A stretch of DNA of 58,076 nucleotides, taken from contig JANXAS010000021.1 in NCBI GenBank assembly GCA_025062195.1, forward strand, positions 1 through 58,076, in the 5' to 3' direction. A model generated the notes under the pieces. That model did not search any database, had not been told where the DNA came from, and was given only the letters and a program-made list of their open reading frames with translations. Shown here one piece after another: positions 4,026 to 57,323 of the stretch. The DNA comes from Armatimonadota bacterium. GTDB lineage: Bacteria > Armatimonadota > Fervidibacteria > Fervidibacterales > Thermosaccharophagaceae. Position 1 is the stretch's first letter. Every line of letters starts with the position of its first letter. Position numbers and translations under genes: made by a program.

Positions 4026-6901
4026 AATCATTTGCCCGCAATCGTAACTTACCGATGATGGCGCTAATAGCTTCCTTGACGCTCGCCATGTTATCTCTCT
4101 CGCTGTGCGGCATTATCCACGAAGGCGCAACTGAGCGCGAGCAGAAAGCATTAGAGCTGCTGAAGAGCGGATTGGAACTTGAAAGGCAAAACAAGCTTGC
4201 GGAAGCTAAGAGAGCGTATGAGCATGCTCTGAAGCTTGACCCGAAGCTTGATGATGCCAAATGGCGTTTGGCACATGTTGAAGGCAAGCTCGGAAACTGG
4301 CACTTAGCTGGGAACATGCTTGAGGAGTTGAGGAGGAGCCACCCGAAAGATGTAAGGGTGCTAAATGCGCTTGCTGAGGCTCATTTGCGATCTGGGCAGT
4401 ATGAGAAAGCCGTATCAGTTGCAAGGAGAGCTGTTTCACTCCGCCCAAAGGGGATAAAGGAGCGATTAATACTCATTGAGGCATTGAGCAGGTGCGGCAA
4501 AGTTGACGAAGCCGCAGAGCATCTTCGTGTTGCCTCGCGCATCTCGCCGAATGATGTGGCAATACATCTCCAGCTTGGGAGATATTATTGCCAGCGCTCT
4601 CTTTTTGAGAAGGCGCTTTATCACCTTCGTGCGGCTAAGCGGCTTGCGCCAGATGAGCCACAGCCAAGGCTGCTTTTGGCGAGAGCTTATTTTGAGCTCG
4701 GCAAGTTGAGTGAGGCAGCTGACGAACTTAGAGGGTTGATAAAGCTTTTCCCGAACGACGCAAAGCTGCTCCACGATTGTGCGCGCTTACTTTTTGATGC
4801 TGGCAGGTTGAATGAAGCCATAGCCTATTACCGAAAGTTGCTCCACATAGTGCCACATCATGATGTGGCTCGCCGTGAGCTAATTGACGCATATATGAGA
4901 GCCAACTTGCACAAGGAAGCCATTCACCACATACGCTTAATGGCACGGTTGAACCCCAATGAGGCAAAGCTCAAAGAAGCGCTCGCAATTTGCTTGCTCA
5001 AGCTCGGAAGGTTAAGAGAGGCGATACCGATACTGCAGCGCCTTCTCTCAATAAACGGCAATGACGCGAGAGTGCACGCAGAGCTTGCGCGAGCATATGC
5101 GATGCTCGGCGAGGTCAAACGGGCACACCGGCATTATGAGATGGCAATCAAAAACGCCTTCACCGCGTCATCGGATGTAAGCAAGGAGGAGAAACTGAGC
5201 CTCATCTCTGAGGCAGCCGAATTTGCGTCCCGCTTGAGTGACCACGAGAGTATTGTTGAGCTATGCGAGCGTGCGATGCGCCTTGAGCCAAATGATGTGC
5301 GGTGGCGCTTGCTCAAGGCGCGCTCATTGATTGAATTGGGCAGGCTGAGGGGCGCCACGGTAAGCCTTAAAGCCACTTTGAGGCGATTTAAAGACTGTGC
5401 CGAGGCTAAGGCGCTTCTTGGCTTAATACAGGCTTGGAGGTTTGAATGGAAGGGCGCCGAGCAGCTTCTACGGGGGGCATTAAACGGCTTGCCGCATGAT
5501 GCCGATGTTGCTGGTGCACTATTGACGATTTACATGTGCCAAGGCAGGGCAGATGATGCATTTAAGTTAATTGAGCGGTGCTCAAGCAGTGGCATGGATG
5601 AAGTGAGCATAGCCCTTCTTAAATCAGAGGCGTATGAAATGGTCGGCGATAACAAACTCTCAAAAGGGGCGCTGATTGCAACGGACGCATTTAAGCGCAG
5701 CGAGCCGAGGTTGCTCCTTCAGCTTGCCAGGCTCTACTTGGTTGATGGTTCATACGAGCCAGCTGTAAGGCACTACACGGGTCTGATTGAGCGGGCTGTC
5801 AAGATGCGCGACATCGCCCTTGAACTCCAGCTTAGGTCGGAGTTGGCTGAGGCTCTTTTCCGGGCGGGCAGATATGATGAGGCTGCATCTGAACTGAAGC
5901 GTGCGATGACTCTATCCCCAAGCGATTGGACTTTAAGGATGCGTCATGCCGATGTGTTGCTCAGGCTCGGCGCAATCAAAGATGCGTTCATTGCGGCATG
6001 GAATGCAGAAAGGGTTTGCGGTGCAGTTGATGCACCGATGCACTTTGCGCAAACGCTGCTCAAGCACGTGAAGGGGAGCATTGATGCGTCGCTTAGAGTG
6101 TGGGTTGAAGTTTGGGAGAGGATGCCGAGCAGCTTTGTTGCCGATGTGGCAATTGAGCTTATGGCGACTCGCGGTCTAACAAGTGAACATGTAAGCTTCT
6201 TGCGCAAATCGTTGTTGGACAGGAACTACAGGACGCCATTGCAGCGCAAGATGGCATTGGAAGTGCTTGCACGGGCATACATGGCAGCTAACATGCACAG
6301 TGATGCAAAGGACATTTGGATGCTTCTGTGCCTGCTCAGCCCAAACGAACCCACTTATCGCGCCGGGCTGGCAGAAGCATGTTATGGCATGGGCGATATC
6401 TCTTGTGCCGACGGAAACTTCAGAGCGGCTCTGCGCATAAATCCGTTTGCGCATGAAATCAGGGAAAGATACGCTCGCTTCCTGATGAAATGCGGCAGGT
6501 TGGTTGAAGCTCAAACACAATGCCAAATAGCGCTCTCGTTGGGCGCGGAGAGAAAGAGGATGTATCTGCTCATGATGGATTGCTATCAGCTTGAGGGCAA
6601 TGAGAAGTTGAGGGAATTTGTGAGGGCTCTTTCAAGCATGTCTGTTAAAGAGCCAGATAACCTTGCACTGGCTGTTGCGGTTGCTGAAGGGTATGAAAGG
6701 CTGCAGGAATACAGGCGCGCGTTGCCCCATTGGAGGAGAGCTTGCGGGCTAACAAGGGCTTCGTTGAAGCTTGTTGAACGACTTAAATCGTGCCTTGATA
6801 GGGCTGGCTATGATGAGGAGGCGGAATGGGCAATGCGTTTTATCCTGGCTGAGGAGAGGAAACGCATCGTTGCCGATTACAGCGTCTACCGAGGATGGTG
6901 A
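4022..6901 (+). CDS. Large TPR-repeat protein, membrane-anchored or secreted
   Basis: A 959-residue protein with a short basic N-terminus and a hydrophobic segment (about residues 10-30, ending LSLSLCGI), so probably exported or anchored. The rest is almost entirely tetratricopeptide repeats from about residue 40 to 930. Typical units read [30 protein letters not shown] and [21 protein letters not shown] solenoids bind peptides or proteins, and the partner cannot be deduced. The GTG start overlaps the hisI stop (GTGA), and the 3' end lies 7 bases before the next gene, so it belongs to the hisI transcription unit, although no link to histidine synthesis is evident. A lipobox is not convincing: LSLC lacks a small residue before Cys. 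Confidence 0.9.
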
Positions 6902-7634: not shown

Positions 7635-7666
7635 GCCAATTGGGTGCATGGGAGCGGTGATGGACT

Positions 7667-8104
7667 ATGACTGCACGCAAAGTCTCAGCGAAGGAACTCA
7701 GAATTTATGCCGATGGTGCATCAATTGGGAATCCGGGTCCAGCTGGGGTTGGTATCGTTGTTGAGGATGAAGACGGCAATGTCATCCTGACGGTGAGCAA
7801 GCCGGTTGGCAATGTCACGGGCAATGCAGCTGAGTATCTGGCATTGATAGAGGCTTTAAAGTTAGCCATGCGATACGATGCCGAATGCATAATCGTCAAC
7901 TTGGACAGCGAACTTGTAGTTAAGCAAGTCAATGGGGATTATTCGGTGCGCTCACGGGAACTTATGCCACTGCATGAGAGGGTGGAGAAGCTCAGGGCAA
8001 AGCTTGGAAGATGCATCATAAGGCATATCCCGTATGTTGAAAACAGGCGTGCGCATAACCTTGCTCGGACGGCGGCGCAAAAGCTCGCTGTGAGCTTGGG
8101 TTGA
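7667..8104 (+). CDS. RNase H-like protein (RNase HI fold)
   Basis: A 145-residue RNase HI-type domain, expected to cut RNA in RNA-DNA hybrids. The catalytic carboxylates visible are Asp in IYADGASIGNPGPAG, Glu in GNAAEYLALIEAL and Asp in VNLDSELVVKQVNG. The fourth position, normally Asp in an N-x2-A-D-x-L-A motif, reads RRAHNLART, so His replaces Asp. In E. coli RNase HI that Asp is known to tolerate His or Asn, so activity is still plausible. It resembles the short rnhA-like proteins found beside zinc-ribbon/Nif3 genes rather than the full E. coli enzyme with its basic handle. It lies 32 bases after the zinc-ribbon gene. Confidence 0.93.
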   Translation: MTARKVSAKELRIYADGASIGNPGPAGVGIVVEDEDGNVILTVSKPVGNVTGNAAEYLALIEALKLAMRYDAECIIVNLDSELVVKQVNGDYSVRSRELMPLHERVEKLRAKLGRCIIRHIPYVENRRAHNLARTAAQKLAVSLG

Positions 8105-56268: not shown

Positions 56269-56303
56269 ATATTTTTGTATTGTAGATGACAGGGGGTCAT
56301 GTA

Positions 56304-56819
56304 ATGACAAGCAGGCAACAAGTGATTGACGAACTTGCCCGCAGGCTTGGGATGAGTGAGGAAGCTGTTGAGAATTTTCTTCGCACGCTCGTTACGATTG
56401 TTGCCCCTCTTGTTCCTGAGGTGCCACCTTACTTTGAGCGCTATTTTGAAGCTCGAATTGGCTCACTTCAACGAGAGATAGAACATTTGAGGGAAGAGAT
56501 AGACAGGCGATTTGAGGGGGTTGATGGAAGGATTGAAGAGTTGAGGGGTGAGATGAATAGGCGGTTTGGAATGGTTGATACAAGGATTGAAGAGTTAAGG
56601 AGTGAGATGGATAAGCGATTTGGAATGGTTGATACAAGGATTGAAGAGTTAAGGGGTGAAATGGACAAGCGATTTGGGGAACTGAGAAGCGATTTGAGGG
56701 GATGGTTTACACAATTTGAGAGACGATTCATCCTTCTTGAACGATGGTTGTTTGTATTGTTGATACCGCTTTTAATTGCGCTGCTTGCTGCTGTCTTTAA
56801 AATACTCGTTAGCTCGTAA
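56304..56819 (+). CDS. Coiled-coil protein with a C-terminal membrane anchor
   Basis: A 171-residue protein. An N-terminal helical region of about 50 residues (VIDELARRLGMSEEAVENFLRTL) is followed by a long charged coiled coil with 18-residue repeats (RFGMVDTRIEELRSEMDK), then one TM helix (LFVLLIPLLIALLAAVFKILV) near the end. It resembles DUF1640-like or prophage-tail-adjacent coiled-coil anchors, but no function is known. ATG 56304 is taken because GGGGGTC lies just upstream; ATG 56286 begins with weak context. It sits within the tRNA cluster, a position often occupied by acquired genes. Confidence 0.75.
   Translation: MTSRQQVIDELARRLGMSEEAVENFLRTLVTIVAPLVPEVPPYFERYFEARIGSLQREIEHLREEIDRRFEGVDGRIEELRGEMNRRFGMVDTRIEELRSEMDKRFGMVDTRIEELRGEMDKRFGELRSDLRGWFTQFERRFILLERWLFVLLIPLLIALLAAVFKILVSS
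56508..56669 (+). repeat. 54-bp (18-residue) tandem repeats in the coiled-coil gene
   Basis: Three consecutive 54-bp units start at 56508, 56562 and 56616, with a partial fourth at 56670. Units 2 and 3 are nearly identical. Each encodes R-F-G-M-V-D-T-R-I-E-E-L-R-x-E-M-D-K. Confidence 0.9.
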
Positions 56820-57107: not shown

Positions 57108-57199
57108 GGCGGGTATGGTGCTGGTGTGCCCCACGGAGCGCAAATCCGTTGGCTCTGCCAAGTGAAGGCAGAGGCTGGGTTCGATTCCCAGGCCCGCCT
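57108..57199 (+). tRNA. Aberrant tRNA-Cys (GCA) with long variable arm and tRNA-Sec-like D arm
   Basis: A 92-nt tRNA. Acceptor GGCGGGT/GCCCGCC is 7 bp, with a terminal T-G pair. The D arm is a 5-bp stem GGTGC/GTGCC (two G-U pairs) closed by a TGGT tetraloop, not the usual 8-nt loop. Position 8 is A rather than U. The anticodon stem ACGGA/TCCGT holds loop GCGCAAA, anticodon GCA at 57140-57142, with C, not U, at position 33. A long variable arm follows (57150-57174) with a 7-bp stem CTCTGCC/GGCAGAG. The T arm CTGGG/CCCAG with TTCGATT is normal. Discriminator T (U73), no encoded CCA. GCA plus U73 are the CysRS identity elements, while the D and variable arms mimic tRNA-Sec. Confidence 0.8.
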
Positions 57200-57245: not shown

Positions 57246-57323
57246 GCGCCCGTAGCTCAGTCTGGACAGAGCGCGGGACTTCGGATCCCGGGGTCGGGGG
57301 TTCGAATCCCTTCGGGCGCGCCA
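57246..57323 (+). tRNA. tRNA-Arg (UCG)
   Basis: Acceptor GCGCCCG/CGGGCGC with discriminator G and encoded CCA at 57321-57323; anticodon stem CGGGA/TCCCG, loop CTTCGGA, anticodon TCG; T stem GGGGG/CCCTT with two G-T pairs. It decodes CGA and CGG-type codons. It is 46 bases after the aberrant tRNA-Cys. Confidence 0.95.

What the first reader, a model, noticed from the sequence alone, without database searches (positions are those of the whole stretch)
57108..57199. A tRNA-Cys built on a tRNA-Sec-like scaffold
The gene has a long 7-bp variable arm, a short TGGT D loop on an extended stem and A at position 8, as in bacterial tRNA-Sec, but its anticodon is GCA and its discriminator is U73, the classic cysteine identity elements. 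Position 33 is C instead of the near-universal U. Its 7/5 acceptor/T arms differ from the 8/4 minor tRNA-Cys species described in metagenome surveys (Mukai and co-workers). It could be the sole tRNA-Cys of this lineage, or a second cysteine tRNA with a regulatory or recoding role.
Basis: partly seen in the sequence, partly recalled or inferred. Interest (0 to 1): 0.92.

Follow-up and report, generated by a model that had tools for sequence, protein, structure and literature searches.

The report
Selenocysteine-tRNA look-alike that carries cysteine
This bacterium has, besides its normal cysteine and selenocysteine tRNAs, a second cysteine tRNA built on the selenocysteine-tRNA body; it belongs to a small known family thought to put cysteine where selenocysteine is meant, but it has an unusual 12-pair arm, lacks the near-universal U33, and related genes survive in close species that seem to have no selenocysteine machinery.

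Summary
In detail: 57108-57199 encodes a 92-nt tRNA with 7/5 acceptor/T arms, a 4-nt D loop, a 7-bp variable arm, anticodon GCA, U73, A8 and C33. It is not the only tRNA-Cys: the genome also has an ordinary tRNA-Cys, an ordinary tRNA-Sec(UCA), SelA, one SelB and one CysRS. It belongs to the known family of tRNA-Sec-like tRNA-Cys ('selC*' tRNA-Cys / 'tRNA-ReC'), whose Desulfotomaculum member is reported to be delivered by SelB and to read UGA as Cys. A pattern scan of GTDB genomes gave 74 U73 members; many sit beside yedE, yedF, selD, selB or a selenium LysR regulator. A model scan of 291 genomes of the phylum (Armatimonadota) found nine carriers. What is new: the family reaches Armatimonadota; there the arm is a clear or near 7/5 (12 bp), not the described 8/4+bulge; C33 recurs in at least five lineages (7/78, against 0/46 selC and 0/21 GCA-type tRNA-Sec); and four Zipacnadia genomes keep the tRNA with no detectable SelA, SelB or selC. 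Best reading: a CysRS-charged accessory tRNA of the selenocysteine system, SelB-delivered as a cysteine stand-in; SelB dependence in this phylum is open.

The parts
57108..57199 (+). tRNA-Sec-like tRNA-Cys(GCA): acceptor 57108-57114 with 57192-57198, U73 at 57199
   Evidence: ARAGORN, Rfam RF01852 44.4 bits, MFE fold, covariation
57117..57130 (+). D arm: 5-bp stem GGTGC/GTGCC with a 4-nt loop TGGT, as in tRNA-Sec
   Evidence: sequence, fold
57138..57144 (+). anticodon loop GCGCAAA: G32, C33, anticodon GCA (57140-57142), A37, A38
57153..57173 (+). long variable arm, 7-bp stem CTCTGCC/GGCAGAG
57175..57191 (+). T arm, 5 bp CTGGG/CCCAG, no bulge: with the acceptor a 7/5 (12-bp) branch
57246..57323 (+). 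ordinary tRNA-Arg(TCG), 46 nt downstream; part of the same tRNA cluster (Pro 55839, Gly 55952, Arg 56058, His 56193)
   Evidence: ARAGORN

Best explanation
The gene encodes an accessory cysteine tRNA of the tRNA-Sec-like tRNA-Cys family (selC* tRNA-Cys / tRNA-ReC). It is charged with cysteine by the cell's single ordinary CysRS through U73, the GCA anticodon and a GGC acceptor start that the normal tRNA-Cys of the genome also has (inferred). Its Sec-like body (4-nt D loop, long variable arm) lets SelB carry it to selenocysteine sites, where cysteine is inserted at UGA by a G34-A3 mispair; this works as a stand-in when selenium or Sec-tRNA is short (reported for a Desulfotomaculum member; inferred here). 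Shown here: structure, identity bases, family membership by sequence, co-existence with SelA, SelB, selC and a normal tRNA-Cys, and the selenium-gene context of the family elsewhere. Not shown: charging, factor, codon. I put class membership at about 0.9 and the SelB route in this organism at about 0.5.
For: Family: an exact-pattern scan of GTDB genomes gave 98 loci; with the window and G001 added, 74 have U73 and the Sec-like body and 21 are tRNA-Sec with GCA and G73. In a tree of 96 tRNAs the 14 selC and 4 GCA-type tRNA-Sec separate from all 78 U73 genes with support 0.97, and the window's gene falls with the U73 genes. Function of the family: 30 of 75 U73 loci have YedF, YedE, SelD or SelB within 4 kb; representatives of these families score over the NCBIfam cut-offs (YedF 202 bits, YedE 489, SelD 368, selenium-metabolism LysR 326, SelB 322). 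20 of 23 tested carrier genomes outside the phylum encode SelB above cut-off. A review states that the D. nigrificans tRNA does not use EF-Tu, is delivered by SelB, and decodes UGA-Sec with Cys (PMC11415595). In this genome: SelB, SelA, selC(UCA), one CysRS, normal tRNA-Cys.
Against: The window's locus has no selenium genes nearby (contig end 877 nt downstream). Its 12-bp 7/5 branch is the ordinary elongator geometry, whereas the genome's own tRNA-Sec reads as 8/5, so SelB preference is not obvious. C33 is unusual for any tRNA that works on the ribosome. Four Zipacnadia genomes (90, 92, 86 and 59% complete) carry the tRNA but no SelA, SelB or selC was found, so SelB may be dispensable for whatever keeps the gene. 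The formate dehydrogenase alpha of this genome has no in-frame stop, so no UGA target was shown.
Confidence: 0.55

Rival explanations
1. In Armatimonadota the tRNA has left the Sec system: with a 7/5 branch it is delivered by EF-Tu as a minor cysteine tRNA, or serves as a Cys donor or regulator off the ribosome, which would explain C33 and its survival without SelB.
For: 7/5 geometry in all or nearly all Armatimonadota members; four Zipacnadia genomes with the tRNA but without SelA, SelB or selC, at a conserved place in the chromosome; two of them (G220, G151) still have a normal tRNA-Cys; C33 in G000 and G192.
Against: SelA, SelB and selC can lie together (G155: all on contig C122), so one missing stretch could remove all three; if the chance of a gap is 1 minus completeness, the product over four genomes is about 5e-4, but gaps in such genomes are not independent. 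In genus g25 the three species without Sec also lack the tRNA, which suggests a link. Carriers elsewhere nearly all have SelB.
Confidence: 0.25
2. A decaying relic (pseudogene) of a once functional tRNA-ReC: C33, G32, a U-G closing pair and no CCA mark loss of function.
For: C33; U7-G66 pair; separated from selenium genes; G151 has a mismatch at 27-43 and G155 has lost a D-loop base.
Against: All stems of the window gene are intact at about 71% identity to the nearest relative in the phylum, with compensatory changes; C33 also occurs in six other members (at least five lineages in all) with intact stems; 19 of 46 tRNA genes here lack CCA.
Confidence: 0.12
3. It inserts cysteine, or misacylated selenocysteine, at Cys codons UGC/UGU next to a SECIS-like hairpin, like the GCA-type tRNA-Sec of Aeromonas and Burkholderiales.
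For: The anticodon matches UGC/UGU; GCA-type tRNA-Sec genes exist (21 loci; PMC11415595).
Against: U73 and the tree put it with the cysteine-type genes, not with GCA-type tRNA-Sec; SerRS and SelA are expected to need G73 (established knowledge, not tested).
Confidence: 0.06

Closest known systems
selC* tRNA-Cys / tRNA-ReC (Mukai et al. 2017 NAR; Vargas-Rodriguez et al. 2018 RNA Biol)
   Same: tRNA-Sec-like body with U73 and GCA, next to a normal tRNA-Sec and a normal tRNA-Cys in the genome, SelB present
   Different: 7/5 branch without bulge instead of 8/4 with a bulged nucleotide; C33; phylum not among those named in the review (Firmicutes, Thermodesulfobacteria, Nitrospirae, Proteobacteria); no selB* or cysS* beside it
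tRNA-Sec with sense anticodon GCA (Mukai et al. 2016; Aeromonas, here 21 loci, mostly Burkholderiales)
   Same: Sec-like body, GCA anticodon
   Different: those have G73 and a longer Sec-type acceptor and D region, and group with selC in the tree
canonical tRNA-Sec (RF01852)
   Same: long variable arm, 4-nt D loop; scores 44.4 bits, below the 47-bit cut-off
   Different: anticodon, U73, 12-bp branch; the genome has its own selC(UCA) at 73.8 bits
canonical tRNA-Cys
   Same: GCA, U73, A37, acceptor starts GGCG
   Different: long variable arm, no U8, short D loop, C33
allo-tRNA (8/4, 9/3)
   Same: non-standard class II body
   Different: serine/alanine identity, 8/4 or 9/3 arms

Membership tests
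selC* tRNA-Cys / tRNA-ReC | tRNA-Sec-like body (long variable arm, 4-nt D loop) | tested here: met
selC* tRNA-Cys / tRNA-ReC | CysRS identity: U73 and GCA (or UCA) | tested here: met
selC* tRNA-Cys / tRNA-ReC | groups with other U73 Sec-like tRNAs, apart from selC | tested here: met
   bipartition support 0.97; short sequences, so moderate weight
selC* tRNA-Cys / tRNA-ReC | canonical tRNA-Sec, tRNA-Cys and SelB in the same genome | tested here: met
selC* tRNA-Cys (as described in PMC7609411) | modified 8/4 branch with an unpaired nucleotide in the T stem | tested here: not met
   7/5, no bulge, A8 opposite G65; many other U73 members also deviate (49 have a 13-bp-type 3' side), so I file it as a variant, not a typical member
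tRNA-ReC | charged by CysRS, carried by SelB and not EF-Tu, reads UGA with Cys | not testable with these tools
   reported for D. nigrificans (PMC11415595)
selC* of Desulfobacterales | own selB* and cysS* next to the tRNA | tested here: not met
   one SelB on C88 and one CysRS on C104, both away from C84
canonical tRNA-Sec | UCA anticodon, G73, RF01852 over cut-off | tested here: not met
GCA-type tRNA-Sec | G73 and Sec-type arms | tested here: not met

The most novel reading that the evidence does not exclude
In Armatimonadota the Sec-like tRNA-Cys has become independent of SelB: it persists in genomes that lost selenocysteine, has the 12-bp elongator geometry, and its repeated loss of U33 reflects a special decoding mode (for example eased G34-A3 mispairing at UGA) or a job off the ribosome.
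Probability: 0.25. Interest if true: 0.8.

Novelty: new variant of a known kind. Interest (0 to 1): 0.55.

Why it matters
It extends a rare recoding-tRNA family to another phylum with a form whose arm length should, by textbook rules, favour EF-Tu over SelB, and it supplies natural C33 variants. Genomes that keep the tRNA without selenocysteine machinery make a direct test possible of whether the family's only role is to back up selenocysteine.

Tried and rejected
Sole tRNA-Cys: rejected. Alternative anticodon by another fold: rejected. tRNA-Ser or tRNA-Sec variant: rejected by U73, score and tree. A dedicated second SelB or CysRS: none found. Phage origin: no match in viral contigs; the contig carries chromosomal tRNA, pilus-type and hydrolase genes. 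Formate dehydrogenase as UGA target in this genome: no in-frame stop. Promoter and terminator scan: nothing found, which is uninformative. A pyruvate-phosphate dikinase shared between G001 and L120 was taken as coincidence. The two primary papers on the family are not held, so the name tRNA-ReC and the claim of programmed mispairing rest on memory plus two reviews.

Full report
WHAT IS THERE. The gene at 57108-57199 (+) was found independently by ARAGORN and by the tRNA-Sec model of Rfam. Sequence: GGCGGGT-AT-GGTGC-TGGT-GTGCC-CC-ACGGA-GCGCAAA-TCCGT-TGG-CTCTGCC-AAGTGAA-GGCAGAG-G-CTGGG-TTCGATT-CCCAG-GCCCGCC-T. It folds as a cloverleaf with 7-bp acceptor, 5-bp D stem with 4-nt loop, 5-bp anticodon stem, 7-bp variable arm and 5-bp T stem. 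An 8th acceptor pair would be A8-G65, so 7/5 is not ambiguous. Anticodon GCA, A37, U73, G32, C33. Of 46 tRNA genes recovered from the genome only this one lacks U33.

THE GENOME. The window is contig C84 of a 3.4-Mb, 97% complete draft. It also holds a normal tRNA-Cys with loop CTGCAAA (L007:1618-1693), a normal tRNA-Sec(UCA) (L067:8488-8585), SelA (C21), one SelB (C88) and one CysRS (C104). The phylum is Armatimonadota in the GTDB sense: relative G220 carries the same 29078-base contig as the named record 'Candidatus Zipacnadia' JALGUJ010000060.1; that Zipacnadia is placed in Armatimonadota is my own knowledge.

RELATIVES IN THE PHYLUM. A covariance model built from four members was run on all 291 genomes of the phylum held. 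Nine carry the tRNA at 76-105 bits: the window genome, G001 (same order), G192, and six genomes of family f21 (Zipacnadia); canonical tRNA-Sec scores at most 73. For eight of the nine the sequences were read; the G218 copy was not called by ARAGORN. The eight share GGCGG at the acceptor start and U73; G192 also has C33. In Zipacnadia the gene sits at a conserved place between genes unrelated to selenium. In G001 it lies just upstream of a SelT/SelW/SelH-family protein with a CxxC motif (TIGR02174, 49.8 bits against a cut-off of 34.2; Pfam Rdx).

RELATIVES ELSEWHERE. One pattern scan of GTDB genomes gave 98 loci; counting the window and G001, 74 have U73 and 21 are GCA-type tRNA-Sec with G73. 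The viral collection gave none. U73 members come from Nitrospirota, Desulfotomaculum-type Firmicutes, Thermodesulfobacteria and relatives, Planctomycetes, Spirochaetes, Chloroflexota and Armatimonadota. Their arms vary: 49 have the 13-bp-type 3' side and 25 the 12-bp type; unambiguous 7/5 genes are the window, G001 and five genes of other phyla. Gene neighbourhoods are rich in selenium genes: 30 of 75 loci have YedF, YedE, SelD or SelB within 4 kb (the 75th locus, L122, was added by hand), and representatives were confirmed with curated models, including the selenium-metabolism LysR regulator and the double-cubane reductase. These are genes that comparative genomics tied to selenium use (PMC5322559). 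SelB was found in 20 of 23 carrier genomes tested. The pattern fixes GCAAA and GGTG, so members with other anticodons or D loops were missed.

KNOWN FAMILY. Reviews describe selC* tRNA-Cys with U73, GCA or UCA, and an 8/4 arm with a bulge (PMC7609411), and state that the D. nigrificans tRNA-Sec-like tRNA-Cys is carried by SelB, not EF-Tu, and reads UGA with Cys (PMC11415595). The primary papers are not held. From memory, the 2018 paper named it tRNA-ReC and proposed a safeguard role. In a tree of 96 tRNAs the U73 genes are separated from selC plus GCA-type tRNA-Sec with support 0.97; Armatimonadota members group together with one Symbiobacterium gene (0.78). tRNAs are short, so this is moderate evidence.

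WHAT IS ODD. (a) The 7/5 arm. (b) C33: 7 of 78 U73 genes (the window, G192, L083 and L159 of one genome, L129, L158, L106), against 0 of 46 canonical selC and 0 of 21 GCA-type tRNA-Sec; one-sided Fisher p about 0.011 without correction for relatedness (computed with 68 controls, one more than the final count of 67). Close relatives of L129 (L135, L162) and of L158 (L102) have U33, so the change arose several times. (c) G220, G068, G151 and G218 carry the tRNA, but no SelA, SelB or selC was found; G220 and G151 have a normal tRNA-Cys. Draft gaps could explain part of this: in G155 selA, selB and selC lie on one contig.

MECHANISM. Shown: structure, identity bases, coexistence with the Sec system, family context. 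Inferred: charging by CysRS, delivery by SelB, cysteine at UGA by G34-A3 mispairing as a stand-in for selenocysteine. C33 could ease that mispairing by changing the U-turn; this is speculation. The chief rival is that this phylum's version no longer needs SelB.

VERDICT. A real, conserved and unusual gene; a new variant of a known family, not a new kind.

Noticed in passing
L082, L094, L097, L098, L111, L152 and about 15 more: tRNA-Sec genes with Cys anticodon GCA and G73 in many Burkholderiales (Rubrivivax, Piscinibacter, Leptothrix, Aquabacterium): candidates for selenocysteine read at Cys codons.
   Followed up: partly
L101, L140, L141: Cloacimonadota genes with a Sec-like body and GCA but G or A at the apparent discriminator and a short acceptor pairing; the genome of L140 showed no SelB. 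Class unclear.
   Followed up: no
L083 (match 7644-7706) and L159 (match 4158-4220): One Desulfofervidaceae genome (G304) has two copies of the Sec-like tRNA-Cys, both with C33; one is followed 24 nt later by a selB gene, and the genome has two SelB-type genes over the cut-off.
   Followed up: partly
L109, L115, L132, L138, L139, L147, L176, L260: A secreted transglutaminase-like protein (Pfam PF01841 in the G001 copy) recurs next to the tRNA in Nitrospirota, a Gemmataceae genome and G001; role unknown.
   Followed up: partly
L086, L089, L103, L124: The tRNA lies 4-28 nt upstream of a double-cubane-cluster reductase gene in several anaerobes.
   Followed up: partly
window 56286-56819: 177-aa coiled-coil protein with near-identical tandem repeats (MVDTRIEELRxEMDKRFG) between the tRNA genes; only weak, low-complexity Pfam matches.
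   Followed up: no
genomes G027, G090, G159, G204 (family f21): Four Zipacnadia relatives lack both the tRNA and the Sec machinery; three belong to the genus of G097, which has both, suggesting joint loss.
   Followed up: partly
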